Below, piece by piece: positions 45,849-55,955 of a stretch of DNA of 64,000 bases; the first letter of the stretch is position 1, and each line of letters begins with the position of its first letter. The position numbers were made by a program, and so were the translations under genes. Source of the DNA: Thermoleophilaceae bacterium (GTDB lineage Bacteria; Actinomycetota; Thermoleophilia; Solirubrobacterales; Thermoleophilaceae); NCBI GenBank assembly GCA_040901445.1, contig JBBDYQ010000025.1, positions 187,925 through 251,924 of the forward strand, written 5' to 3'. The notes below the pieces were generated by a model. That model saw only the letters and a list, made by a program, of their open reading frames with translations. It searched no databases and was not told where the DNA came from.

Positions 45849-46244
45849 TCAGGACAGGTCGGTCCTTTCGTTGACCCACACCACGAACGCCTCCTCCGTG
45901 ATCTCGCGCGCCGCGAGCCGCTCGATCATGCCCGCGGTCTCCGCCTGGCCGTCCGCCGGGTGGGAGAACGTGCCACCGTTGCGCTCGATGAACTCGACCA
46001 TCGACACGTAGGCGACGCGCTTGTTCCCGTCGGGGAGCGGGTGGTTGCGGATGATCCGCGAGCAGAGGATCGCGGCCTTCGTGGCCACGCCCTCATAGAA
46101 CTCGACCTCGCCGAACCCGGCGAACGGCGCGGCGAGCGCCGATTCCGCCTGGCTGATCTTCGTGATCCGCGCGACCTGCTCGGCCGGAACGCCCAGGGCG
46201 TACTCGGCGATGAGCAGGAGGTCGGCTAGTTCAATTGACCGCAT
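45849..46244 (-). CDS. doc: Fic/Doc-family toxin
   Basis: 131 residues, the normal Doc length. The catalytic loop reads HPLPDGNKRVAY, matching HxFx(D/E)GNKR except that the aromatic position is Leu. Doc kinases phosphorylate EF-Tu; Fic proteins AMPylate targets. With the Asp-Gly in the loop this is intermediate, so the exact modification cannot be told. ATG 46244 faces the RHH gene across a nested operator; a Phd-type antitoxin upstream in the same direction is lacking. Confidence 0.88.
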   Translation of the reverse strand: MRSIELADLLLIAEYALGVPAEQVARITKISQAESALAAPFAGFGEVEFYEGVATKAAILCSRIIRNHPLPDGNKRVAYVSMVEFIERNGGTFSHPADGQAETAGMIERLAAREITEEAFVVWVNERTDLS

Positions 46245-46246
46245 GG

Positions 46247-46295
46247 TTGCACGGTATCACGATACCTTGACACCGTGCAACAGCGATGCTAGGTT
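46247..46295. promoter_or_regulatory. Nested operator and promoter between doc and the RHH gene
   Basis: Outer arms TTGCACGGT (46247-46255) and ACCGTGCAA (46272-46280) enclose inner arms GGTATC (46253-46258) and GATACC (46261-46266). The plus-strand promoter TTGACA (46267-46272), 17-bp spacer, TAGGTT (46290-46295) overlaps the right arm. A protein bound here would repress both divergent genes, fitting autoregulation of a toxin-antitoxin unit. Confidence 0.8.
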
Positions 46296-46334
46296 CATAG
46301 CAAGCAACTACCACCGACGCTAGGAGGAGGACCG

Positions 46335-46544
46335 ATGGCCAAGGCAATGACGCTGCGGCTGCCGGACGACAAGGCGGCCGAGCTCGAGGCGATCGCCCGT
46401 GCCGACGAGATGCCCATCTCCGAGGCTGTGCGCAGCGCCATCGAGCACCACATCGAGTCGCGCCGGGCCGACAAGGACTTCCAGGCTCGGCTCGCCAGCC
46501 TGATCGAGCGGGACAAGGAGATCCTCGAGCGACTGGCGCGATAG
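46335..46544 (+). CDS. Ribbon-helix-helix protein, probable antitoxin
   Basis: 69 residues, an Arc/MetJ-like RHH: the DNA-binding strand MTLRLPDDKAAELEAIARADEMPISEAVRSAI, then an extended charged helix (ESRRADKDFQARLASLIERDKEILERLAR) suitable for wrapping a partner toxin. AGGAGGAGG precedes ATG 46335. It is divergent from doc and ends before a clear terminator. Antitoxin role is inferred from proximity and the shared operator. Confidence 0.8.
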   Translation: MAKAMTLRLPDDKAAELEAIARADEMPISEAVRSAIEHHIESRRADKDFQARLASLIERDKEILERLAR

Positions 46545-46722: not shown

Positions 46723-46746
46723 GAATCCCGCTCATGGAGCGGGTTC
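46723..46746. terminator. Displaced original terminator of tRNA-Glu
   Basis: GAATCCCGCTC-atg-GAGCGGGTTC hairpin just outside attL. An equivalent hairpin follows the intact tRNA-Glu at 55853-55876, as expected if the element split the tRNA from its own downstream hairpin and supplied a new one. Confidence 0.65.
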
Positions 46747-46772
46747 CGCAAGTACCGCCACGGGGATTCGAA
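46739..46772. repeat. attL (34-bp core)
   Basis: Identical to 55869-55902; begins GCGGGTTCCGCAAGTACCGC and ends GGGGATTCGAA, where the last part is the antisense of the T loop and acceptor 3' side of tRNA-Glu. To the right the sequence departs from tRNA (TGCCGCG), so this is the end carrying the cut-off tRNA 3' fragment. Confidence 0.92.
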
Positions 46773-46819
46773 TGCCGCGCGGCGGTTGCGGCGCTTTGCC
46801 GCTGTTCGCGTTCTCCCCG

Positions 46820-48211
46820 CTAATCGAGCGTTTCCACGATTTCGGCGCCCGCCACGTTTGCGGCTGTTTCCGGACGTTCTGTTGACCTGGCGTTGACCCT
46901 GCCGTTGTCGGTCGCCACGGTGCCGAATGCCTCATGGACTCGCGCTAGATCGTGGTCGTGACCACGATCTAGGCGCTGGCCCCGGAGCGGCTCGAGCGGG
47001 TCGCCGAGGTCGGCGTCGAGCAGGTGGACGTAGGTGTCGAGCGTGAAGCTCGGCGAGTGGTGGCCGAGCCACCGCTGCACCGCGACGACGCTCCGCCCGG
47101 CGGCGAACATGCGCGACGCGACCGTGTGCCTGAACGTGTGGAAGCCCGCCCACTCGACGCCCGCCTCCGAGCACGCCGGCGCGAGCACGCGTTGGTGCAG
47201 GTGGTGGGTGTCATAGGCCCCGCCGGCCGGGCTCTCGAACACGAGCGCGTCTGAGGCCGTCCCTAGCGCCCTCAGACGGTCGGCCAGGTCGATCGGGATG
47301 GGGAGGTCCCGACGCGCGTAGCGGGATTTGAGCGCGCCTATGACCATCCCCTCGCCGGTGCGGCGCACCGCGCGCTGGCGGACCCGCACGTACGGCCGGT
47401 CGCCGTCGAGCGCCAGGTGGCGGCCCTCGAACGCGATCAGCTCCGAGCGACGGACGCCCGTCGCGGCGAGCAGCTCGAACATGACCCGATGCCCGGGGTG
47501 CGCGAGCGCGACAACGAGCTCCATCGTCTCGACCGTCTCGCCGTCGTCCTCGAAGCGGGGGAACGGCCGCGGCGCGTCGTCGTCGTCCTCGACGCGCGGC
47601 CGGTGCGGCAGCGCCGCCCCCAGGGCCGGGTTGTGCGGGATCAGGCCCTCGCGCCGGGCGGTCGCCAGGCACGCCGTGAGCGGCGCCAGCGCGTTCCTGA
47701 CGCTCTTGTCGGACAGCGTGCCGCCCTTCCCGTTCGGTTGCTTCACGAGCCACCCGATGAGGTCGGCCACGTCGCGCGGCGCGACGTCGGAGAGCCTTAC
47801 GCCCTCCTCGAAGTGGCGCAGCGCGTAGCGGTTGAGCCGCGAGCGGTACTCGTGGCGCGTCTCCTCGCGGAAGCCGCGCCGGCCCGTGCCCTGGTAGCGC
47901 TCGACCCACTCGCGGGCGTACTCGTGCAGCGTCGGCTCCGCCCGCTCGCGTTCGGCGCGCTCGCGCTCGCAGTCCGGGCACTCCTCGCGCGGCTGGTCGC
48001 GGTGGAGGCCGGCGGCGTGCCCCTTCGACAGCTTCGCTCGCCGGGCGGCCGCGGCCTTACCCTCGCGGGCCTCGGCGAAGGTGCCGAACGTCTGCATCGT
48101 GGGCCGCGGGACCACGTAGGAGCACTCGCAGCGGCCGTTGCGGCCGCAGCCGCTCTTGTGCCGGCGGAAGATCCCGGGCGTCGTCGTCTTCTCGAGCTTC
48201 GTGGCCATCAC
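46820..48211 (-). CDS. int: Tyrosine recombinase (phage-type integrase)
   Basis: 463 residues. N-terminal arm-binding part with a Cys cluster (KSGCGRNGRCECSY, ECPDCERE) that may hold zinc, a SAM-like core-binding domain (TLHEYAREWVERYQ...), then the catalytic domain with R254 (ATGVRRSEL), H358-xx-R361 (HTFRHTV), H in WLGHHSP and nucleophile Y394 (TLDTYVH). Full catalytic set, so probably active. It lies 47 bp from attL, and its ATG overlaps the HhH gene's stop by 4 nt. Confidence 0.95.
   Translation of the reverse strand: MMATKLEKTTTPGIFRRHKSGCGRNGRCECSYVVPRPTMQTFGTFAEAREGKAAAARRAKLSKGHAAGLHRDQPREECPDCERERAERERAEPTLHEYAREWVERYQGTGRRGFREETRHEYRSRLNRYALRHFEEGVRLSDVAPRDVADLIGWLVKQPNGKGGTLSDKSVRNALAPLTACLATARREGLIPHNPALGAALPHRPRVEDDDDAPRPFPRFEDDGETVETMELVVALAHPGHRVMFELLAATGVRRSELIAFEGRHLALDGDRPYVRVRQRAVRRTGEGMVIGALKSRYARRDLPIPIDLADRLRALGTASDALVFESPAGGAYDTHHLHQRVLAPACSEAGVEWAGFHTFRHTVASRMFAAGRSVVAVQRWLGHHSPSFTLDTYVHLLDADLGDPLEPLRGQRLDRGHDHDLARVHEAFGTVATDNGRVNARSTERPETAANVAGAEIVETLD
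46881..46898. promoter_or_regulatory. Candidate integrase arm-type sites, left end
   Basis: Two direct GTTGACC words 11 bp apart (46881-46887, 46892-46898), matched by the same pair at the right end (55814-55832). Spacing and position inside the att-flanking DNA fit arm-type integrase sites. The pair lies within the int C-terminal codons. Confidence 0.5.
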
Positions 48212-48642
48212 GCCTCCTGCCGGTTGTGGTTGAAGTGCAGCCCGCGCGCGGCCAGGGCGGCTTCGATCGCGGCGATCGACTTGGCGCCGATGCCCGGCAC
48301 GGCCGCCGCCTCCCGGCGCGTGCGGGCCGCGGCGTCGAGCAGCGTCAGCAGCCCGGCCCGCTCCGTCCTGCCGATCGCGGTGACGGGAACCACCTTCCGG
48401 ATGGCCAGCGCGTCGCTGACCGGCCCATCGGGGCGAACGTCCATCGGGTCCCTGAGCACCGGGATCGACGCCAGCGCGACCGCGGACTCCGGGTCGGGCG
48501 GCTCCGCGTCGGGCAGCGCGGCCCGCATCGCGCTCGCGATTTTCGCGAGCGCCGGCTGCCAGATGTCGTCCTCTATCACCACGGCGGCTTGCTCGACCGC
48601 CCCCAGCACCATCTCGAACGCTTCCCGGTCGCGATCGGTCAT
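48208..48642 (-). CDS. Element protein with C-terminal helix-hairpin-helix
   Basis: 144 residues. An acidic helical N-terminal half with no motif, then VPGIGAKSIAAIEAALAARGL, a helix-hairpin-helix of the alpha-CTD/DisA type that contacts DNA backbone. Start ATG 48642 after a GGGGG run; stop overlaps the integrase start by 4 nt, so the two are made together. It may be a recombination directionality or accessory DNA-binding factor. Confidence 0.65.
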   Translation of the reverse strand: MTDRDREAFEMVLGAVEQAAVVIEDDIWQPALAKIASAMRAALPDAEPPDPESAVALASIPVLRDPMDVRPDGPVSDALAIRKVVPVTAIGRTERAGLLTLLDAAARTRREAAAVPGIGAKSIAAIEAALAARGLHFNHNRQEA

Positions 48643-48736
48643 CACGTCCCCCTCTCTGCCACGGGAGGGCGGCGCCAGTGGACCGCGAGCGGCCCTACGA
48701 TGCCTGTAGGCATAGGAGCATCTCCTCCTGTGCTCA

Positions 48737-48772
48737 GAGAGCCCGTCAGCGTCAACAGCGCGGCGGGCTCTC
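48737..48772. terminator. Stem-loop between structural and integration modules
   Basis: GAGAGCCCG (48737-48745) and CGGGCTCTC (48764-48772) around an 18-nt loop, followed on the plus side by GCTTT. It separates the lectin-fold gene from the HhH-integrase pair and could let integrase be expressed separately. 48643-48736 and 48773-48823 show no gene. Confidence 0.45.
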
Positions 48773-48823
48773 GCTTTGCCGTACACGACGACTCTACGCC
48801 CGCCACGGTGGCCGCGCAAGAGG

Positions 48824-49717
48824 TCACTCGCCCGGGAGCAGGATGCCGCGCTCAACGATGTCCACCGTGATCTTCGTGGACCGCTCGAGGCCGTGGTCGC
48901 GCTCGGCCACGCTGTCGCCGTCCCGTGCCGCCACCACGATCCGTGACGTGCCCGGGGGGAGGTACATCCGCGCGCCGCGGTAGTGCGGCGGCTTGCCCTT
49001 GTTGCCGCTCGCGTCGAGCGTGACCGTGTCGTCGTGGCGGACCTCGACGGAGCCCTCCGGCGGGATGGCGTACTTCGGGGAGTCGAGCGCTTGGGCGAAG
49101 AAGTCGGAGTAGATGTGGGTCGCGTCGTCGTCGACTGTGTCGGCGAACCCGAGCTGTCCGCTCGCGTAGTCGCCGCCCGGGGCGAGCCTGTCGTCCTGCC
49201 CAGCCTCGGAGACCAGCGCCGTTCCGGCGCCGGTCATCGTGAAGCCCCACCCCCCGCCCTCGTCGACGTCCAGCGAGAGCGCGTAGGGCACGTCCACCTC
49301 GAAGTCCACCCCCCCGCTGGCGACGATCCCCGCATCCACGCCCGCGTCGAAGAACCTGACGAGCCACGCCCGCGACGAGAAGCTGAATTGCGCTATGAGG
49401 TAGTCGAAGTTGGCCGGGGTGCCGCGGGCGAGCAGCCAAGCGACCCCGGTCGCCGCGTCGGACTCCACAGTCACCCCCACGCGGACGCCGGTCAGCGAAT
49501 CGGGCAGGACCGCGTAGCGGGTGCTCGGTGACGCCGCCGTCCGGATCGCCCCGTCGCTCTCCCTGGTGAAGTCGGGGCTACCCGGCGCGTGGATGTCGGT
49601 GTCCCACGGCCCGGTGCCCACGTCGGGGTTCGATGCGTCGAGCGCCGCGCTCGCGCCGGTGAGGTCGTCGCGGGCGTTGAGGGTGAGCGGGTGGAACTGG
49701 CCGGGTGCCCGGATCAT
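48824..49717 (-). CDS. Putative phage structural protein with lectin-like (LamG) fold
   Basis: 297 residues from ATG 49717. The N-terminal 200 residues alternate strands with W/F/Y and G/D turns (GVRVGVTVESDAATGVAWLLA, FDYLIAQFSFSSRAWLVRFF, GGGWGFTMTGAGTALVSEAG), like concanavalin/LamG domains in phage tail or decoration proteins. A C-terminal domain (VTLDASGNKGKPPHYRGARMYLPPGTSRIVVAA..) resembles the distal domain of siphovirus tail proteins. No catalytic motif. Likely the receptor-binding or capsid-surface component. Confidence 0.55.
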   Translation of the reverse strand: MIRAPGQFHPLTLNARDDLTGASAALDASNPDVGTGPWDTDIHAPGSPDFTRESDGAIRTAASPSTRYAVLPDSLTGVRVGVTVESDAATGVAWLLARGTPANFDYLIAQFSFSSRAWLVRFFDAGVDAGIVASGGVDFEVDVPYALSLDVDEGGGWGFTMTGAGTALVSEAGQDDRLAPGGDYASGQLGFADTVDDDATHIYSDFFAQALDSPKYAIPPEGSVEVRHDDTVTLDASGNKGKPPHYRGARMYLPPGTSRIVVAARDGDSVAERDHGLERSTKITVDIVERGILLPGE

Positions 49718-49721
49718 CTTC

Positions 49722-50384
49722 CTAGTCCCTTCTCTCGACAGCGATGGCGTGCTCGACCGCGATCTGCGGCGACCGGTGCCCGCCCGGAAAGACCCAGCCC
49801 GAAGCCGGATCGAAGTACTCGTAGGGCCCCTGCCCCACGATGCAGTGGACGAGCTCGCCCGGCCGGTGCGGGCGATCCCACCCACCCTCGTCCGGAGCGT
49901 CGGCCATCGCGTAGGAGTCGGCCACCGCATTGTCCGTGGAGGCACCGACACCCATCGCCTCGTGCACGGGGATGCGATGATCTACCCCGTCGGGTAGATC
50001 ATCGCCAGGACGCCTGAGCGTCTGCCCGCGTTTGAGGATCGTCCCGTCGCGTTGCCCCTCTCGGACCAGTCCGCCGATGCGGCGATCCCACCCCAGCCAC
50101 AAGCGGCGATCAGACGCCGGCGGCGGCAGCTCGTGTAGCGATTCCCACCGGAACCCCTGCGCGGTGAAGAACTCCAGCGCCTCGCCGAAGTCATCCATCG
50201 GCGGCACGTCCTCAATGGGGACTTGGGTGATCGTGGCGACGGCGGCCACGATGCAGCCATCCTCGCGGCCGTTGGACCGCTGGTAGTAGCCCGTGCGGCC
50301 ATCGGGCAGCGTGACGGTCAGTCGCGGCAGCACGGCCTCGATGCCATCAACCGTCATGCGGAGCGGCGGAGCCTCAACGCTCAC
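49722..50384 (-). CDS. Papain-like cysteine hydrolase family protein, element copy 1
   Basis: 220 residues from GTG 50384 (ATG 50357 possible). The signature EDGCIVAAVATITQVPIEDVP places C44 at a helix start; H180 (ELVHCIVGQ) and D192 (YFDPA) complete a possible Cys-His-Asp triad with H-to-D spacing of 12. The paralogue at 50559 has the same signature and spacing. Similar C39/papain-fold proteins of unknown role are common in phages. Role in capsid maturation or host interaction is speculation. Confidence 0.6.
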   Translation of the reverse strand: MSVEAPPLRMTVDGIEAVLPRLTVTLPDGRTGYYQRSNGREDGCIVAAVATITQVPIEDVPPMDDFGEALEFFTAQGFRWESLHELPPPASDRRLWLGWDRRIGGLVREGQRDGTILKRGQTLRRPGDDLPDGVDHRIPVHEAMGVGASTDNAVADSYAMADAPDEGGWDRPHRPGELVHCIVGQGPYEYFDPASGWVFPGGHRSPQIAVEHAIAVERRD

Positions 50385-50553
50385 GGCGCTCCAGGCCGCG
50401 CACGCCACGCGGCGCCCAGGGAGCCCGATCGGCGCGGCCGGCCCCCTCCGGCCCGTCCTGCGGCCCGTCCTGCGGCGCGCGCTTCGGCTCGACTGCGAAG
50501 TGGACGCGCCCAGGGAGCCCCTCCTTCTTGCGAAAAGCTTTACCAGCACCCAT
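50374..50553 (-). CDS. Small basic/acidic element protein (59 aa)
   Basis: Begins MGAGKAFRKKEGLPGRVHFAVEP, then a low-complexity PQDGPQDGPEGAGRAD stretch and an Arg-rich end. It overlaps the next gene start by 11 nt and starts 5 bp after the upstream stop, the tight packing typical of phage genes; otherwise unsupported. Confidence 0.45.
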   Translation of the reverse strand: MGAGKAFRKKEGLPGRVHFAVEPKRAPQDGPQDGPEGAGRADRAPWAPRGVRGLERRER

Positions 50554-50558
50554 TTGCT

Positions 50559-51254
50559 CTACACCTCTCTCTCGTCGTCGTTGTCGCGCTCGACGCTGAT
50601 GCCGTAGGCGATGTCGCTTTCGTTCCACTGCCGCACCCGGATGCGGACGTCCCCGACGGTGGGCGGCTTCACCGAGATGGCCGGGTCGAAGTACACCCGG
50701 TCCCAGGCCATCACCAGGCAGTGATCGAGGAAGTTGGAGCCCGCGCCCGAGCGGGCCGCCGCGGCCGCCGGGATGAAGTCAGCCTGCGCGTCCATCTGCT
50801 CCTGGTCGACCTCGACGACGCCGATCCATCGCTGGCAGTCGAACACCGCGTGAGCCGTCGGGCCCCAGCCGCCCGGCTCGGGCAGGTCCCGGTGGACGCC
50901 GAACCGGAGGCCTCGCTTGCGTAGAAACAGCTCGAGCCGCGCCCACGATTCGTCGTTGATTGCCTCCGGGTCGTCGCCGGCCGTCAGGCGAGCGTCGAGG
51001 CGAACGTCGGGCAGCTGCTCCAGCGGCACCTGCAGCACCGTGGCGAGCGCCACCCGGAAGCAGTCGTCCCGACGATCGGGGTGCATGCAATAGAGCAGCT
51101 CGCTGTCGCCGGAGGCTCGCGCGACCGGAGCCTTCCGCCCGAACGCCAACCACGGGCAACTGCCGCCGGTGGTGAGCAGGTCCCGGTCCACCTCAAGCTC
51201 GCGCACCACCCGCGCGCCGAGCACCGTCTCGCCCTTCCCGCGCTTCCTGGCCAT
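50559..51254 (-). CDS. Papain-like cysteine hydrolase family protein, element copy 2
   Basis: 231 residues. ATG 51254 shares one base with the HNH stop (TGATG). Signature DDCFRVALATVLQVPLEQLP puts C65 at the helix start; H178 (NFLDHCLVMAW) and D190 (YFDPA) complete the putative triad, again 12 apart. It shares the pattern C-x3-A-x-A-T-x2-Q-V-P-x-E-x2-P with the copy at 49722 but little else, so the duplication is old. N-terminal ARKRGKGETVLGARVV is basic. Confidence 0.62.
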   Translation of the reverse strand: MARKRGKGETVLGARVVRELEVDRDLLTTGGSCPWLAFGRKAPVARASGDSELLYCMHPDRRDDCFRVALATVLQVPLEQLPDVRLDARLTAGDDPEAINDESWARLELFLRKRGLRFGVHRDLPEPGGWGPTAHAVFDCQRWIGVVEVDQEQMDAQADFIPAAAAARSGAGSNFLDHCLVMAWDRVYFDPAISVKPPTVGDVRIRVRQWNESDIAYGISVERDNDDEREV

Positions 51255-51655
51255 CAGGGGGCCTTTCGGTCGGGTTCTGGGACGCTCAGGAATCCCCAAA
51301 CCCGTAGACACCGGGAAACGCTAGGCCGAAGGTCGTCACGGCGATCTGCGTTTCGGGGTCTCCCCCACCCCGGGGTGCCCGTGTGCGCGCTGGTCATCGG
51401 TGCGAGCCCGGGGTGTTGGCCGCGTGGCCGCTTGCGCGGCGGCCGGCGCGCGGTGATCGCGGAGTGGTGTGACGTGCATAGCGCTTGCAGGTTGGTCGGG
51501 TCGTAGCCGCGTGGGCCGGCTGGGCCGAGGCCGTCGAGGTGGTGCACCTGCTGGCTCGGCTCGTTGCAGCCGTTCTCCTCGCAGGTCGGGCGCTGGCGGA
51601 GGATGCGGGCGGAGAGTCGGCGCCAGCGTCGCCGGTCGTAGGGGCGGCCGGGCAT
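51254..51655 (-). CDS. Phage-type HNH endonuclease
   Basis: 133 residues from ATG 51655 (TGATG overlap with the upstream stop). HNH core: RPTCEENGCNEPSQQVHHLDG, ...YDPTNLQALCTSHHSAIT, with metal-binding Cys pairs and the catalytic His. In many siphoviruses an HNH gene next to the capsid or terminase genes is needed for packaging; here it is two genes away from the capsid gene and the terminase is missing. The C-terminal 60 residues are Pro/Arg-rich and may be disordered. Confidence 0.8.
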   Translation of the reverse strand: MPGRPYDRRRWRRLSARILRQRPTCEENGCNEPSQQVHHLDGLGPAGPRGYDPTNLQALCTSHHSAITARRPPRKRPRGQHPGLAPMTSAHTGTPGWGRPRNADRRDDLRPSVSRCLRVWGFLSVPEPDRKAP

Positions 51656-51963
51656 CAGGCTTCTGTCTCCTGCTCGGGGTGCCAGTCGCCGGTGTCGGGG
51701 TCGCGCATGACGCTGCCGTGGTGGCGGGCGAGGTCGAGCCCGGCGCCAACTTGCGGGTGGTGCTCGATGAGGCAGTGAAGGCACCACGTGTAGTAGTCGT
51801 CGTCTGTGGCGTCGTCGCCGTGGTCGGGCGCGTCGCTCATGAGCACGGCGTAGCCGGAGTCGTGCGGGAGGTCGGACCCCCCCGGGGGGTCATCGTGTAG
51901 GACGGCGACGACGGGCGGCGTGGTGCCGACGACGACGGCGACCTGGTGGCCATGCTCGGTCAC
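51655..51963 (-). CDS. Hypothetical element protein with Cys/His cluster (102 aa)
   Basis: GTG start. An acidic middle (DAPDHGDDATDDDYYTW) leads to CLHCLIEHHPQVGAGLDLARHH, a possible zinc site, and a short polar tail. The N-terminal part (HQVAVVVGTTPPVVAVLHDDPP) may form a small sheet. No family recognised; it precedes and is coupled to the HNH gene. Confidence 0.55.
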   Translation of the reverse strand: MTEHGHQVAVVVGTTPPVVAVLHDDPPGGSDLPHDSGYAVLMSDAPDHGDDATDDDYYTWCLHCLIEHHPQVGAGLDLARHHGSVMRDPDTGDWHPEQETEA

Positions 51964-51986
51964 GCCGTGCCCCCTGGTCCTCGGCG

Positions 51987-52024
51987 GCCCGCCGCGCAGG
52001 GAGAGAAAGGCCCTGCGGGCGGGC
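51987..52024. terminator. Stem-loop after the capsid gene
   Basis: GCCCGCCGCGCAGGG (51987-52001) and CCCTGCGGGCGGGC (52011-52024) form a 14-bp stem with one bulge and a 9-nt loop. No strong T run. It lies 115 bp downstream of the capsid stop, where highly expressed capsid mRNA would be expected to end or attenuate. The rest of 51964-52139 has no gene. Confidence 0.6.
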
Positions 52025-52139
52025 GACTGCCGCGCACTACTAAAACGCGGGCCGAGGCTCGGAGGCCCGCCGCGCGCTCAAGGCGATGACGCACGACGGG
52101 CACTGGCGTGGTCATGTGCACGCCTCCGAGGTTCATGGG

Positions 52140-53000
52140 CTAGGCGACCGCCGTGTCGAGCTTCACGATCCGGTCGCCGTCGACCAGTTCCGCGCCGCCG
52201 AACGTGTTGACCGCGATCACGTCGGACAGCACGCTCGCGTCGAAGTCCTGGAGGACTCGGAGCGCGATGCCCTGGACCGCCTGCGCCCGGGCGCTGGCGG
52301 CGCCGCTCGGGACCGCCGGCGCCAGCGTGGCGAAGGCCAGCGCGGAGCGGTGGTAGACCGCGGCCTCGCCGTCGGTGAGCGCCGAGCTCTCGACGACCTG
52401 CAGCCCGTAGATCGAGCCGAGCGTGGCGTTGCGCAGCGCGTCCGGGGACCCGGACTCGTTGACCTTGACGAACGTGTCCACCTTGAACAGGCGGCTCGCG
52501 ATCTGTGGGCTGACCGCCAGGTAGCGGCCGGCGGCGGGCACGTCGTTGTCCACCAGCGTCTCGCGGGCGGCGAGGATCACGTCCTTGGTGTCCTCGGGAT
52601 CCTCGGCGAGCGCGAACGAGCTGGTCGCCGCCAGGCCGTTGATGACCGCGGCGAGGCGGTCCTCGCCGGCCGCTGCGACGGCGGCGATCATCGGCGCGAG
52701 CACCTGGTTGGCGAAGTCGCGCACGTCGAGCGTGAGCTCTTCATCGGTGATCTTGACCGCCGAGTACCAGTGTTCGAGGACCACCGCGATCTCCGTCTCG
52801 TCGAGGGAGTCGAACGAGATGGGATCGCCGCCGACCACCTGCTGGTTGGCGGTGAGCCGCTGAGGCACGCGAACGATCGCGGTGCCGCCGGAGCCGTGGT
52901 AGTCGGTGCCGGGGACTCGGAGCGCGGTCTGTGGCAGCACGAGCATGCGTGCGAGCAGCTCGACCGCGAGGCTGACGATGTCACGGGTGACGAGGGCCAT
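52140..53000 (-). CDS. Major capsid protein (P22 coat-like)
   Basis: 286 residues. MALVTRDIVSLAVELLARMLVLPQT, then TAIVRVPQRLTANQQ, the SAVKITDEELTLDVRDFANQVLAPM block, AVSPQIASRLFK and GLQVVESS are the features I associate with P22-coat/HK97-fold capsid proteins of actinophages and Streptomyces prophages. AAGGAAG lies 6 nt before ATG 53000. Full length for this subgroup, no frameshift. It follows a scaffold-like gene, the normal order. Confidence 0.8.
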   Translation of the reverse strand: MALVTRDIVSLAVELLARMLVLPQTALRVPGTDYHGSGGTAIVRVPQRLTANQQVVGGDPISFDSLDETEIAVVLEHWYSAVKITDEELTLDVRDFANQVLAPMIAAVAAAGEDRLAAVINGLAATSSFALAEDPEDTKDVILAARETLVDNDVPAAGRYLAVSPQIASRLFKVDTFVKVNESGSPDALRNATLGSIYGLQVVESSALTDGEAAVYHRSALAFATLAPAVPSGAASARAQAVQGIALRVLQDFDASVLSDVIAVNTFGGAELVDGDRIVKLDTAVA

Positions 53001-53003
53001 GGG

Positions 53004-53123
53004 TTACTTCCTTTCGATGGCAGAGCCTCGGCTGTCGCCGAAGCGCGTGTTCAACTCGACTCGCGGATCTCCCGCGGGGCTGCCATCGCGGCCGTGCCCT
53101 GGTGCTACCGCCGCGGCCAGCAT
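53004..53123 (-). CDS. Possible 39-aa ORF just upstream of the capsid gene
   Basis: ATG 53123 to TAA 53004, reading MLAAAVAPGHGRDGSPAGD and ending SRGSAIERK, overlapping the capsid ribosome site. It might be a leader or head-decoration peptide, or chance. The 174-bp gap otherwise holds no gene. Confidence 0.25.
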   Translation of the reverse strand: MLAAAVAPGHGRDGSPAGDPRVELNTRFGDSRGSAIERK

Positions 53124-53174
53124 CGCGCCGACCGGGCACCTCTCAGTGTATGGGGCGAAGCGGCGGATCTCCCG

Positions 53175-53594
53175 TCACCACCGCTTGAGCACGTCGTCAG
53201 CCACCGCGCCGAGATCCTGCGGCTCGGCGCTCGACACAGCGCCCGGCTTGAGGCGCTCCTTCGGCCGCGTGCGGCGGCTCTCACTGGCCTCTTCGGCGGG
53301 CTTGAACGCCTCCGTGAGCGCGTCGGCACTGGCGGCCAGCTCCTCCTCGGTGTCGCCGGTCAGGAACCCAGCCTGCTGGTCGCTCAGGTTCCTCTCTGCG
53401 GCCACGGCGCGGACGCGCTCGGCTCGCTCGAGCTCGTCGGCGCGCTGGCGTGCCTCGCGCGCCTCGCGTTCGGCGCGTGCCCGGGCGTCGCGCTCGGCTT
53501 TCAGCGCCTTCGCGGCGCCGTCGCCCTCGGGCTTGCCCTCCTGCTGCTCGGGCTTGCCCTCCTGCTCGGGGTTGGTGTTCTCGGGATCGGTCAT
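53175..53594 (-). CDS. Putative scaffolding protein
   Basis: 139 residues. Acidic, Gln/Glu/Pro-rich N terminus (NTNPEQEGKPEQQEGKPEGD), a coiled coil of Ala/Arg/Glu heptads (ALKAERDARARAEREAREAR), then a short helical domain (RNLSDQQAGFLTGDTEEELAAS) and a basic, conserved-looking end. This composition and its position just before the capsid gene are those of phage scaffolds that copurify with procapsids. Start ATG 53594, 6 bp after the previous stop. Confidence 0.65.
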   Translation of the reverse strand: MTDPENTNPEQEGKPEQQEGKPEGDGAAKALKAERDARARAEREAREARQRADELERAERVRAVAAERNLSDQQAGFLTGDTEEELAASADALTEAFKPAEEASESRRTRPKERLKPGAVSSAEPQDLGAVADDVLKRW

Positions 53595-53599
53595 TTGGA

Positions 53600-53998
53600 T
53601 CAGTTCTCCTGCGGGTCGATGACGTCGGGGTAGTTGTCCAGCAGCTCGCCCAGGAGCTCGTTCGGGTCCTGCTCCAGGGACAGCAGCAGGATCGACGGGA
53701 GCACCGCGAGCTGCTCGACCAGCGCGTCGAGGTTCGCGTCGTTCAGGATCGCGGCCATCTGCTCGCCGTCGCGCTTGTGGGCGGCGATGGCGAGCCGGAT
53801 CGCGGCACGCTGCGCGTCCGCCTTCTGCTTCTGGGTCCATTCGTGCACTACGTCCTCCTCGTGTTGGGGTGGGTCTAGCTTGGCGGTGCGTTCGCGCCGG
53901 CCGCAGCGGAGACAGCGCGGCGGCCCGTGGACGTCCTCCACTAGGAACGGGACGGGGCACCAGCACGGCGCGGCGATCGTCGGCGCGGGGTCGTTCAT
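53600..53998 (-). CDS. Element protein: zinc-ribbon N terminus plus helical domain (132 aa)
   Basis: Begins MNDPAPTIAAPCWCPVPFLV, then CLRCGRRE, giving a CxC..CxxC zinc ribbon, followed by long helices (TQKQKADAQRAAIRLAIAAHKRDGEQMAAIL, LLLSLEQDPNELLGELLDNYPDV). ATG 53998 overlaps the upstream stop by 4 nt. The C-terminal part looks like a helical interaction module. No family recognised. Confidence 0.6.
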   Translation of the reverse strand: MNDPAPTIAAPCWCPVPFLVEDVHGPPRCLRCGRRERTAKLDPPQHEEDVVHEWTQKQKADAQRAAIRLAIAAHKRDGEQMAAILNDANLDALVEQLAVLPSILLLSLEQDPNELLGELLDNYPDVIDPQEN

Positions 53999-54177
53999 GC
54001 GGCCCTCCGGGGGCCGTAGCGGCGGATCTCGGCGGCGACGGCCTCGAGCCTCGCGGCGTGGCGGTGGCAGACCCAGCGAGCCTCGAGCGCGGGCTCCTGG
54101 CAGCCTCCGCCGCGGTACGTACAGCTCGTGCCCGGCTGCGGCCACGAGGGGCGCTCCTGGGCGGCGCGGCGGCTCAC
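53995..54177 (-). CDS. Small zinc-finger-like element protein (60 aa)
   Basis: CTYRGGGCQEPALEARWVCHRH holds Cys-x7-Cys-x9-CHRH, a plausible zinc site, and an Arg-rich helical end. ATGA overlaps at both ends with neighbouring genes make it a real, translationally coupled gene. Confidence 0.65.
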   Translation of the reverse strand: MSRRAAQERPSWPQPGTSCTYRGGGCQEPALEARWVCHRHAARLEAVAAEIRRYGPRRAA

Positions 54178-55022
54178 GCGGCGTCTTCCTCAGTGCCGAA
54201 GCGTTTGTCCTCGCAGGACCGGCAGAACGCGCCCTTCCCAGCGGGGATCTCGGTCCCGCAGTCGCGGCACTCGAGCTTGGAGATGCCGGCGAGGTCGCGG
54301 AGCGCCTTGGCGCGGCGCTCCCGCACGTCCCGGTGGTCCGGGCCGCGCTTGGCCACGGTGCGGCACGCGATCGCGAACGCGGCGCCAGCGTCGTCCTCTT
54401 TCCAGTCGTCCTTGAGTCCCCAGCGGACGGCGAGCGCCGCTGCCTCCCTCGCCAGCTGGTCGCGCTCGGCGGGGGCCAGGCCGGCGGCGTGGCTCTCGAC
54501 GGCGAGAACGACCTGGTTTCGAATGTTGGTTTCGTTGCCGGTGAAGCGCTCGCACCTGCGCAGCGTCGCGAGGACTGCCGTCATTGATTCCTCAGAAAGC
54601 CCCCCGCCGCCGCCCGCGCGAGCGGTGGACGGTTCTCTGACGATTAAGGACGGTTCGGGTGTCACCCGTGACAGGGTCTCCGTCTCAGATTGAGACGGTC
54701 CGGCCGCGTCGATGACACTGTGTCGATCTGAGACGGTCGCATCTTGAGAGGGTGTGAGGGCCTCGAGACGGACGCGGTAGCGGTTGCAGCCGTTGCGCGC
54801 CGACTTGTACGACACCTCGAGCTCGCCGAGCTCCTTCAGCCGATCGACGCAGCGATGCACGGTCGAGAGCGAGACGCCGGCGCGCTCCGCGATCGTCTCG
54901 ACGGACGGCCACGCCTCGGCGCCCTCGTGGTTCGCACACTCGGCGATGACCACGAGCACCATCCGTGCCGAGCCGCGGGCGCGAGAATGGCGGAGAACGG
55001 CCTCTACGGCGGTGAAGCTCAC
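54174..55022 (-). CDS. Replication-type helix-turn-helix protein with C-terminal zinc ribbon
   Basis: 282 residues from GTG 55022 (GTGA overlap with the excisionase-like stop). A winged HTH (AWPSVETIAERAGVSLSTVHRCVDRLKELG) of the HTH_36/DnaD-like initiator type, a disordered Ser/Thr/Pro linker (about 105-155), a helical domain, and a zinc ribbon (LECRDCGTEIPAGKGAFCRSC). This architecture is common for the primosome or initiator protein of actinobacterial integrative elements. It could instead be a transcription factor. Confidence 0.72.
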   Translation of the reverse strand: MSFTAVEAVLRHSRARGSARMVLVVIAECANHEGAEAWPSVETIAERAGVSLSTVHRCVDRLKELGELEVSYKSARNGCNRYRVRLEALTPSQDATVSDRHSVIDAAGPSQSETETLSRVTPEPSLIVREPSTARAGGGGGLSEESMTAVLATLRRCERFTGNETNIRNQVVLAVESHAAGLAPAERDQLAREAAALAVRWGLKDDWKEDDAGAAFAIACRTVAKRGPDHRDVRERRAKALRDLAGISKLECRDCGTEIPAGKGAFCRSCEDKRFGTEEDAA

Positions 55023-55303
55023 GGCCGCAGCCCCCCGCCGGTGCGGACCCACGCGTCGAGCTCGCTCTTACGGCCGACGAGTGCGGATCCGTCGCGGTGC
55101 ACGGGGATGCGCGGCGGGTTGCAGCTCGCGAGCGCATATACGCGACTCCGGGGCGCGTCGAGGTACTCGGCGATCTTCTCTGCCCCGCGGAGCCACCCGT
55201 CGTCGGCGGGCGCCTGGCGGTCGGCGAGCCTCTCGGCGACGCGCTCGGCGAGGACGTCGATCAGCTCGTCGGGGAGCGCGAGCGAAAGCGGCCCGGCGCT
55301 CAT
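55019..55303 (-). CDS. Excisionase-like MerR-type winged-helix protein
   Basis: 94 residues. After an N-terminal helix (LPDELIDVLAERVAERLADRQ) comes a helix-turn-helix of the excisionase type: LRGAEKIAEYLDAPRSRVYALAS, wing PRIPVHRDGSALVGRKSELDAWVR. Such proteins bend DNA at att sites and set integration versus excision. It is at the opposite end of the element from the integrase gene, and starts the main minus-strand transcription unit after the small 55300 gene. Confidence 0.75.
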   Translation of the reverse strand: MSAGPLSLALPDELIDVLAERVAERLADRQAPADDGWLRGAEKIAEYLDAPRSRVYALASCNPPRIPVHRDGSALVGRKSELDAWVRTGGGLRP

Positions 55304-55563
55304 GGCCGCACCCCGCAGAGCGCGGCCGGTCTAGAGCCTGGTGGGTCGGGGTCGCCGCGCGACGCGCTCGATCGTCGCGTCGCGGCGTGGCGCTCGCGCC
55401 GGCCACGTGGCCGGCTGCGCCCCTGCGCGCCACACGTCGGCCCGGTCGTGTCGGAGCGACTCGCCTGCTGCGAGGCGCGTAACGCGGGGCCCATTGGGCC
55501 GCCCATCACCTGGCGGTGGAAGCGCTGGAGCTCGGCGGCCTGCCGAAGTAGTGCGGCGTTCAC
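55300..55563 (-). CDS. Hypothetical Arg-rich element protein (87 aa)
   Basis: MNAALLRQAAELQRFHRQVM gives a clear helix; the rest is Arg/Ser/Pro-rich and likely disordered. ATGA overlap with the excisionase-like start. No family recognised; the low-complexity end weakens the call. Confidence 0.45.
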   Translation of the reverse strand: MNAALLRQAAELQRFHRQVMGGPMGPALRASQQASRSDTTGPTCGAQGRSRPRGRRERHAATRRSSASRGDPDPPGSRPAALCGVRP

Positions 55564-55868
55564 ATGTCCCGCCTGCGCTGGGGCTGGCGCGTGGCGCTAG
55601 CCGGGCGTGTGTGCTGCGTCATCGTCTCGTCTCCTGGCGGTGGTGGCTGCCTGCGCGCTGCGCGTCTCGCCGGGTGGCAGGTGCCGCTGCGGCCCGAGAG
55701 CCGCAGCGGCGAAGCCATCACGTGCAGAGACGATCAGCACGTTTGGATAGTCGCCTTCCTGTCGGACAGAAAGGGTCAGCCCGATTCCGCCAAGGGCGGC
55801 CTCGATGCGGCGTGTTGACCTGGGCGTTGACCCGGTTGCCCCGGAACGACGAGAACCCGCATTGGAAT
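55564..55868. other. Right-end non-coding zone with possible small ORF
   Basis: 305 bp between the last element gene and attR. A protein-like minus-strand frame (IEAALGGIGLTLSVRQEGDY, then PNVLIVSARDG) covers about 55650-55795 but has no normal start. It also holds the right arm-type sites. It would contain the promoter for the element's minus-strand unit; I see no convincing -10/-35. Confidence 0.4.
55814..55832. promoter_or_regulatory. Candidate integrase arm-type sites, right end
   Basis: GTTGACC at 55814-55820 and CGTTGACC at 55825-55832, the same pair in the same orientation as at 46881-46898, with TGGG instead of TGG between them. Confidence 0.5.
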
Positions 55869-55876
55869 GCGGGTTC
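55853..55876 (-). terminator. Hairpin after tRNA-Glu
   Basis: GAACCCGCATT and AATGCGGGTTC form a perfect 11-bp dyad (10 bp plus a 4-nt loop in practice), 7 nt beyond the tRNA 3' end on the minus strand. It replaces the displaced hairpin at 46723-46746. Confidence 0.7.
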
Positions 55877-55902
55877 CGCAAGTACCGCCACGGGGATTCG
55901 AA
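55869..55902. repeat. attR (34-bp core)
   Basis: Identical to 46739-46772. Positions 55883-55902 are the 3' end of the intact tRNA-Glu, so integration left the tRNA functional. Confidence 0.92.
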
Positions 55903-55955
55903 CCCCGGTTTCCGCCGTGAGAGGGCGGCGTCCTAGTCCCCTAGACGATGGCGGC
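55883..55955 (-). tRNA. tRNA-Glu(CTC), integration target
   Basis: 73 nt on the minus strand. Acceptor GCCGCCA/TGGCGGT (one G-U), anticodon stem CCGCC/GGCGG with loop CTCTCAC (anticodon CTC), T arm CCGGG-TTCGAAT-CCCCG region, discriminator A. Its 3' end is part of attR. Confidence 0.94.

What the first reader, a model, noticed from the sequence alone, without database searches (positions are those of the whole stretch)
46739..55902. 9.1-kb tRNA-Glu element with capsid and scaffold but no terminase, portal or tail
Seen: 34-bp att repeats, complete integrase, excisionase-like protein, P22-like capsid protein with a scaffold-like gene, HNH, all genes intact, tightly overlapping and in one direction. 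Missing: any packaging ATPase, portal, protease, tail or lysis gene. A randomly decayed prophage would normally show broken genes. Inference: a phage satellite that makes its own (perhaps smaller) capsid and borrows packaging and tail functions from a helper, analogous to capsid-forming satellites but of a different gene set.
Basis: partly seen in the sequence, partly recalled or inferred. Interest (0 to 1): 0.8.

Follow-up and report, generated by a model that had tools for sequence, protein, structure and literature searches.

The report
Small phage satellite carrying capsid genes
A 9-kb mobile element in an actinobacterium carries its own virus shell gene and shell-assembly helper gene but lacks the DNA pump, portal and tail, so it most likely travels by borrowing those parts from another virus; a second, distantly related element with the same gene trio suggests it is not just a broken virus.

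Summary
A 9.1-kb element lies between copies of a 34-bp exact repeat at the 3' end of tRNA-Glu(CTC). It carries intact, same-direction genes: excisionase-like protein, replication initiator, Zn-ribbon-like protein (g10), scaffold, P22-type capsid protein, HNH, two C39-like proteins, integrase. No ORF is a large terminase or portal. One correction: gene 48824-49717 is homologous to the C-terminal half of a protein encoded next to the tape measure in prophages of the same order, so one tail-derived module is present.

Key new evidence is a second element, in a Solirubrobacteraceae MAG: 8.0 kb, at the 3' end of prs, with a different integrase and replication genes. It has the same g10-scaffold-capsid cassette plus a small terminase, and again no large terminase, portal or tail. 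Both scaffolds are shorter than every phage relative compared, and g10 was found only in these two elements. Searches found no close larger parent prophage.

Best reading (0.7): a capsid-encoding phage satellite that borrows portal, packaging motor and tails. Similar gene sets are published for mycobacterial phage-like elements (candidate PICIs), so this is a new variant of a known kind. Helper dependence, particles and mobility are untested.

The parts
46739..46777 (.). att repeat, integrase end of the element
   Evidence: 37/39 identical, first 34 bp exact, to 55869-55907
55869..55907 (.). att repeat, tRNA end; exact core covers the last 21 bp of tRNA-Glu
55882..55955 (-). tRNA-Glu (CTC), integration target, intact
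   Evidence: ARAGORN; Rfam RF00005 57.7 bits
55019..55303 (-). excisionase-like HTH protein (94 aa)
   Evidence: phrog_18541 5e-7, HTH_17 weak; homologs sit next to related integrases in G182 (36%) and at tRNA-Phe in the same genome (33%)
54174..54962 (-). replication initiator, O-like winged helix (262 aa)
   Evidence: phrog_391 1.3e-16; HTH_36 7e-12
53995..54177 (-). 60-aa Cys/His-rich small protein, weak coding signal
   Evidence: gene call score 8; no family match
53600..53998 (-). g10: Zn-ribbon-like N-terminus plus helical part (132 aa); found only in the two satellites
   Evidence: 35% identical to L011:9120-9569; no match in 50,697 phages or in 230 other genomes of the order
53175..53594 (-). 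scaffolding protein, shortened (139 aa)
   Evidence: phrog_1793 8e-7, phrog_233 1.4e-6; 54% identical to the G069 scaffold; phage relatives 164-259 aa
53001..53174 (-). non-coding spacer between scaffold and capsid, similar to the spacer in the G069 element
   Evidence: local alignment score 42 against null maxima of 35-36; suggestive only
52140..53000 (-). major capsid protein, P22-type (286 aa)
   Evidence: phrog_283 6.9e-38, PF25209 5.5e-10, PF11651 6.6e-9; profile match to solved phage capsid 8zdh 1.1e-49
51655..51963 (-). 102-aa protein, unknown
   Evidence: gene call; no family match
51254..51655 (-). HNH endonuclease (133 aa), start overlaps the previous stop
   Evidence: phrog_589 5.5e-14
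50559..51254 (-). g5: C39-like cysteine-peptidase-like protein (231 aa)
   Evidence: phrog_5845 4e-4, family of unknown function; paralog of g4 with shared Cys, His and Asp-Pro motifs; peptidase reading is by eye
49722..50357 (-). g4: second C39-like protein (about 211 aa, start uncertain)
   Evidence: 35% identical to g5
48824..49717 (-). g3: stand-alone homolog of the C-terminal ~300 aa of a tail-region protein encoded next to the tape measure (297 aa)
   Evidence: neighbour confirmed as tape measure, phrog_13339 1.5e-120
48208..48642 (-). g2: helix-hairpin-helix protein resembling the C-terminal domain of RNA polymerase alpha (144 aa)
   Evidence: weak: 1coo E 0.073, NF003519 0.07
46820..48208 (-). 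tyrosine integrase, complete (462 aa)
   Evidence: phrog_1 1e-43, PF00589 3.3e-13

Best explanation
The element is a phage satellite: an integrated island with its own integrase, excisionase-like protein and replication initiator that makes its own scaffold and major capsid protein and takes portal, packaging ATPase, head-tail connectors, tail and lysis from a helper phage. Shown here: the att-bounded intact element, its gene set, the missing parts, and a second element with the same cassette. Inferred: (a) the satellite capsid protein and its short scaffold build a shell around the helper's portal, giving heads sized for about 9 kb that favour the satellite; (b) DNA is chosen for packaging by a satellite factor (TerS in the G069 element; possibly HNH or another small protein here) working with helper TerL; (c) g3, a piece of a tail-region protein, either swaps into or interferes with the helper's tail.
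For: Precise att sites at tRNA-Glu. All genes open with coding periodicity. Second element in G069 (Solirubrobacteraceae MAG OFTM160): 8.0 kb between 17-bp repeats, one at the 3' end of prs, with a different integrase, a RepB/CHC2-type primase in place of the O-like initiator, the same g10-scaffold-capsid order (35/54/43% identity), a TerS (phrog_1496 5e-20; PF05119) and no TerL, portal or tail. In the order, the g10 profile matches only these two genomes; g10 has no phage match. Both scaffolds (139, 147 aa) lack coil sequence present in eight phage scaffolds of 164-259 aa. Phage relatives with a complete head region run TerL-portal-scaffold-capsid-adaptor. A decayed int/xis pair at tRNA-Phe in the same genome shows what decay looks like here: broken integrase, no cargo. 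A third, unrelated capsid-and-scaffold-only element next to tRNA-Met in G107, with serine integrase and HK97-type capsid, suggests the pattern recurs in the order.
Against: No excision, particle or helper has been observed. No resident helper: no TerL found in the 3.5-Mb assembly (one search had no positive control). The capsid tree does not join the two satellites: they fall with capsids of the G357 phage and Thermobifida phage P1312 (group split 99/98), and a satellite clade is neither supported nor rejected (p-AU 0.28). No TerS and no repressor were recognised in the window element, and g3 could be a leftover of a lost tail module.
Confidence: 0.7

Rival explanations
1. A deletion remnant of an ordinary siphoprophage: TerL, portal, connectors and most tail genes were lost, leaving scaffold, capsid and the C-terminal end of a tail protein, now inert.
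For: g3 starts at the domain boundary of a larger tail-region protein, as a deletion fusion might; integrase and excisionase resemble those of a full prophage in G182 (49% and 36%); no helper in the genome; the capsid tree does not unite the satellites.
Against: All genes are open with coding signal; the same g10-scaffold-capsid cassette with the same missing parts sits in a second element at another site with other integration and replication genes; g10 was not found in phages; both scaffolds share a coil deletion; no close parent prophage in 232 genomes of the order, a phylum sample, IMG/VR or 50,697 phages.
Confidence: 0.18
2. A capsid homolog used to remodel helper capsids: the satellite capsid and scaffold do not build their own shell but mix into helper capsids and make them small or non-functional, as Ccm of SaPIbov5 does; still a satellite, but with a different head mechanism.
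For: Ccm, a phage capsid-protein homolog, redirects helper capsids without a satellite portal or terminase (PMC8569155); this element lacks portal and TerL.
Against: Ccm was the only SaPI protein found in the small capsids (PMC8569155), whereas here a matched scaffold has been kept with the capsid in both elements.
Confidence: 0.25
3. A domesticated capsid compartment or gene-transfer-agent-like cluster kept for the host rather than a mobile element.
For: Capsid and scaffold without packaging genes could make empty shells.
Against: Bounded by att repeats with its own integrase, excisionase-like protein and replication initiator; no other genome of the same family matched the capsid.
Confidence: 0.04

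Closest known systems
Mycobacterial phage-like elements phiRv1, phiRv2, phiBN42_1, phiMmcs_2; elements of this sort re-read as candidate PICIs (PMC3986857, PMC10654092)
   Same: phiRv1 and phiRv2 are 9.3 and 10.8 kb; att-bounded, often at tRNA genes. phiBN42_1 lists integrase, excisionase, primase, prohead protease and capsid, and phiMmcs_2 capsid, HNH and integrase, without terminase or portal; some candidate PICIs carry scaffold and terminase genes
   Different: phiBN42_1 lists a prohead protease and the window element has none recognised; here a P22-type capsid with a separate short scaffold, the g10 gene, a C39-like pair and g3; host is in the order that holds Solirubrobacteraceae, not Mycobacterium. 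No direct sequence comparison was made with these elements
Capsid-forming PICIs (cfPICI), as described in the introduction of PMC10690885
   Same: Satellite encodes its own capsid; HNH present; tails would come from a helper
   Different: cfPICIs also encode protease, portal, connectors, TerL and TerS; none of these was recognised in the window element
SaPIbov5 / cos-type SaPIs with Ccm (PMC8569155)
   Same: Satellite carries a phage capsid-protein homolog; helper supplies the rest of the head
   Different: Ccm occupies only the pentamers in helper shells and was the only SaPI protein found in them; here capsid and scaffold travel together
Streptomyces satellites MulchRoom and MiniFlayer (PMC10690885)
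   Same: Actinobacterial satellites with capsid, scaffold and HNH genes
   Different: They encode TerS, TerL, portal and adapter and lack key replication genes; the window element is the reverse
Siphophages with related capsids, e.g. Thermobifida phage P1312, Streptomyces phage Attoomi, Mycobacterium phage Douge
   Same: Homologous scaffold-capsid pair (35-36% capsid identity)
   Different: Full 42-75 kb phages; P1312 carries TerL, portal, adaptor and tail next to the capsid

Membership tests
Capsid-forming PICI (cfPICI) | Encodes major capsid protein | tested here: met
   phrog_283 6.9e-38
Capsid-forming PICI (cfPICI) | Encodes portal, TerL, TerS, protease and connectors | tested here: not met
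   No Pfam, PHROG or NCBIfam match; no gene but the integrase exceeds 300 aa; g10 is not portal-like
[quoted passage not shown]
Mycobacterium-type candidate PICI (integrase plus major capsid protein, PMC10654092) | Bounded by attL and attR at a specific site | tested here: met
   34-bp exact repeat at tRNA-Glu
Phage satellite in general | Own integration and replication genes | tested here: met
   integrase, excisionase-like protein and O-like initiator
Phage satellite in general | Mobilised by a helper phage and packaged in particles | not testable with these tools
   Needs a helper phage and culture; no TerL-bearing prophage found in the assembly
Classical PICI/SaPI | Divergent control region with an Stl/AlpA-type regulator (from general knowledge) | tested here: not met
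   All genes point one way and no repressor was found; the G069 element does have a divergent integrase and HTH repressor
Intact temperate phage | Complete packaging, head, tail and lysis genes | tested here: not met

The most novel reading that the evidence does not exclude
A satellite lineage that keeps only a scaffold-capsid pair plus a satellite-specific partner (g10), builds its own small shell on a stolen portal and motor, and also carries a free-standing piece of a tail-region protein that swaps into or blocks the helper's tail, so that it controls both head size and tail function of the particles it steals.
Probability: 0.18. Interest if true: 0.72.

Novelty: new variant of a known kind. 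Interest (0 to 1): 0.5.

Why it matters
It is a compact case of a satellite that makes a capsid but not the portal or packaging motor, a division of labour between SaPIs (which mostly remodel helper capsids) and cfPICIs (which make whole heads). A second divergent element with the same cassette makes the phiRv1/phiRv2-type question, satellite or fossil, directly testable outside pathogens, with clear predictions: does the satellite capsid plus short scaffold form small shells, do they accept a foreign portal, and what does g10 do.

Tried and rejected
Hidden TerL or portal: rejected by ORF size, family scans and a profile comparison of g10 with phage portals. Structures of g10 and g3: AlphaFold2 models too poor to use (pLDDT 44 and 30). 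More satellites in IMG/VR by capsid, scaffold, C39-like protein, g10 or g3: the scaffold hits that could be read were ordinary phages and the other queries gave none. Phylum sample of 396 genomes: other capsid hits on readable contigs were phages or phage fragments. Named genome-contig scan: only the G069 MAG. Plus-strand ORFs in the element: out-of-frame shadows in GC-rich DNA. Defence genes (PADLOC): only a weak HTH match. Shared packaging site with candidate helpers: best local scores no better than noise. Empty attB site in relatives: not searched, because no other genome of the same genus appeared in the searches.
Full report
What is there. The element spans 46739-55907. A 39-bp repeat (37/39, 34 bp exact) lies at both ends, the exact core of the tRNA-end copy covering the last 21 bp of an intact tRNA-Glu(CTC) at 55882-55955 minus. 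Genes run away from the tRNA on the minus strand and end with the integrase. A codon-usage gene caller finds 12 genes there, with no strong plus-strand gene; the HNH gene was added from its family match.

Gene assignments. xis-like (55019-55303), O-like replication initiator (54174-54962, phrog_391 1.3e-16), a 60-aa Cys/His protein, g10 (53600-53998), scaffold (53175-53594), capsid (52140-53000), a 102-aa protein, HNH (51254-51655), two C39-like paralogs g5 and g4 (35% identical), g3 (48824-49717), g2 (48208-48642, weakly like the RNA polymerase alpha C-terminal domain), and integrase (46820-48208). The capsid profile matches a solved phage capsid (8zdh) at 1.1e-49.

What is missing. No TerL, portal, protease, connector or lysis match appears in Pfam, PHROGs or NCBIfam. 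Only the integrase exceeds 300 aa; related phage TerL and portal genes encode 425-579 and 450-513 aa, so a disguised TerL or portal is unlikely.

A tail-derived gene. g3 has no phage-database match, but within the order it is similar to the C-terminal half of a 665-671-aa protein encoded directly after the tape measure region in two prophages: 35% over 133 aa (pairwise E 8e-15) and 26% over 310 aa (pairwise E 5e-13); in G072 the neighbour is a tape measure by phrog_13339 1.5e-120. The 665-671-aa protein itself has no good family match, so 'distal tail / tail tip' is inferred from position. g3 starts at the domain boundary. It may be a captured module or a leftover.

The second element. A capsid search over 232 genomes of the order found five carriers, the window's genome included. 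One, G069 (Solirubrobacteraceae MAG OFTM160), has an 8.0-kb element between 17-bp repeats, the left one at the 3' end of prs. It encodes integrase, HTH repressor, excisionase, a RepB/CHC2-type primase, g10 (35%), scaffold (54%), capsid (43%) and TerS (phrog_1496 5e-20, PF05119), and no TerL, portal or tail. Integration site, integrase and replication genes differ, so the shared cassette is not simply the same insertion inherited.

Shared features of the two. In the order, the g10 profile matches only these two genomes, and g10 has no match in 50,697 phages. Both scaffolds (139 and 147 aa) lack coil sequence present in eight phage scaffolds (164-259 aa). Both have a longer scaffold-capsid spacer (174 and 195 bp) than the phage relatives measured (16-98 bp from the coordinates), and the two spacers align better than 1000 dinucleotide shuffles and 651 real windows (score 42 against 35-36). 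Unrelated phage loci reach 43 for the G069 spacer when many windows are scanned, so this is only suggestive.

Against over-reading. The capsid tree places both satellites with the G357 phage and Thermobifida phage P1312 (99/98) but does not unite them; a satellite clade is not rejected (p-AU 0.28). The capsid could have been captured twice. The window element has no recognised TerS and no repressor. No TerL was found in the host assembly, so any helper would have to come from outside.

Remnant test. The other capsid relatives that could be read were full prophages, phages or phage contig fragments with the usual head order, except a short G173 contig (L016) whose context is too small to judge. 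In the comparisons made, none exceeded about 39% capsid identity to the window, against 43-45% for the G069 satellite. In the same genome a related int/xis pair at tRNA-Phe has a broken integrase and no cargo, a picture of real decay.

Convergence. A third element, in G107, lies between host genes next to tRNA-Met: scaffold (phrog_4708 2.8e-5), HK97-type capsid (phrog_10 1.8e-25), a protein whose N-terminus reads like a TIR domain (read by eye, not tested against Pfam), and a serine integrase, with no TerL, portal or tail called. Its middle part codes poorly and its att sites were not found, so it may be partly degraded.

Mechanism and comparison. The most economical model is a satellite that supplies scaffold and capsid and borrows the rest. 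Published relatives in kind are mycobacterial phage-like elements with integrase and capsid but no listed terminase or portal (phiBN42_1, phiMmcs_2; PMC3986857); regions with integrase plus capsid were proposed in 2023 as candidate PICIs (PMC10654092). cfPICIs differ by encoding the whole head and packaging set (PMC10690885). Ccm of SaPIbov5 shows that a capsid homolog can redirect helper shells (PMC8569155). Tail-assembly inhibitors carried by satellites (PMC11364771) make an interference role for g3 conceivable, but g3 was not shown to be related to them.

Limits. Everything here is sequence comparison of two elements; at least one comes from a MAG. Structure predictions failed. Helper, excision and particles are untested.

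Noticed in passing
   Followed up: yes
L071 3709-13216 (genome G107): Third small element in the same order, next to tRNA-Met: scaffold, HK97-type capsid, TIR-like protein, HNH-like ORF and serine integrase, with no TerL, portal or tail called.
   Followed up: partly
L058 11587-13343 (same genome, contig C15): Decayed relative of the element's excisionase-integrase pair at tRNA-Phe, with the integrase broken into pieces.
   Followed up: partly
window 53001-53174 and L011 10013-10207: Non-coding spacer between scaffold and capsid is longer than in related phages and similar between the two satellites; could be regulatory or a packaging signal.
   Followed up: partly
window 49722-51254 (-): Two tandem, diverged C39-like cysteine-peptidase-like paralogs of unknown role.
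   Followed up: no
window 48208-48642 (-): Small protein with a helix-hairpin-helix end resembling the RNA polymerase alpha C-terminal domain; weak match.
   Followed up: no
window 45849-46544: Doc/Fic-like toxin gene and a divergent ribbon-helix-helix gene just outside the integrase end of the element.
   Followed up: no
window 53526-53566: Perfect 20-bp repeat inside the scaffold gene, giving a doubled EGKPE segment.
   Followed up: no
L016 (genome G173, contig C135): Capsid gene on a 4.2-kb contig with no portal or terminase called beside it; too short to say whether it is another capsid-only element.
   Followed up: no
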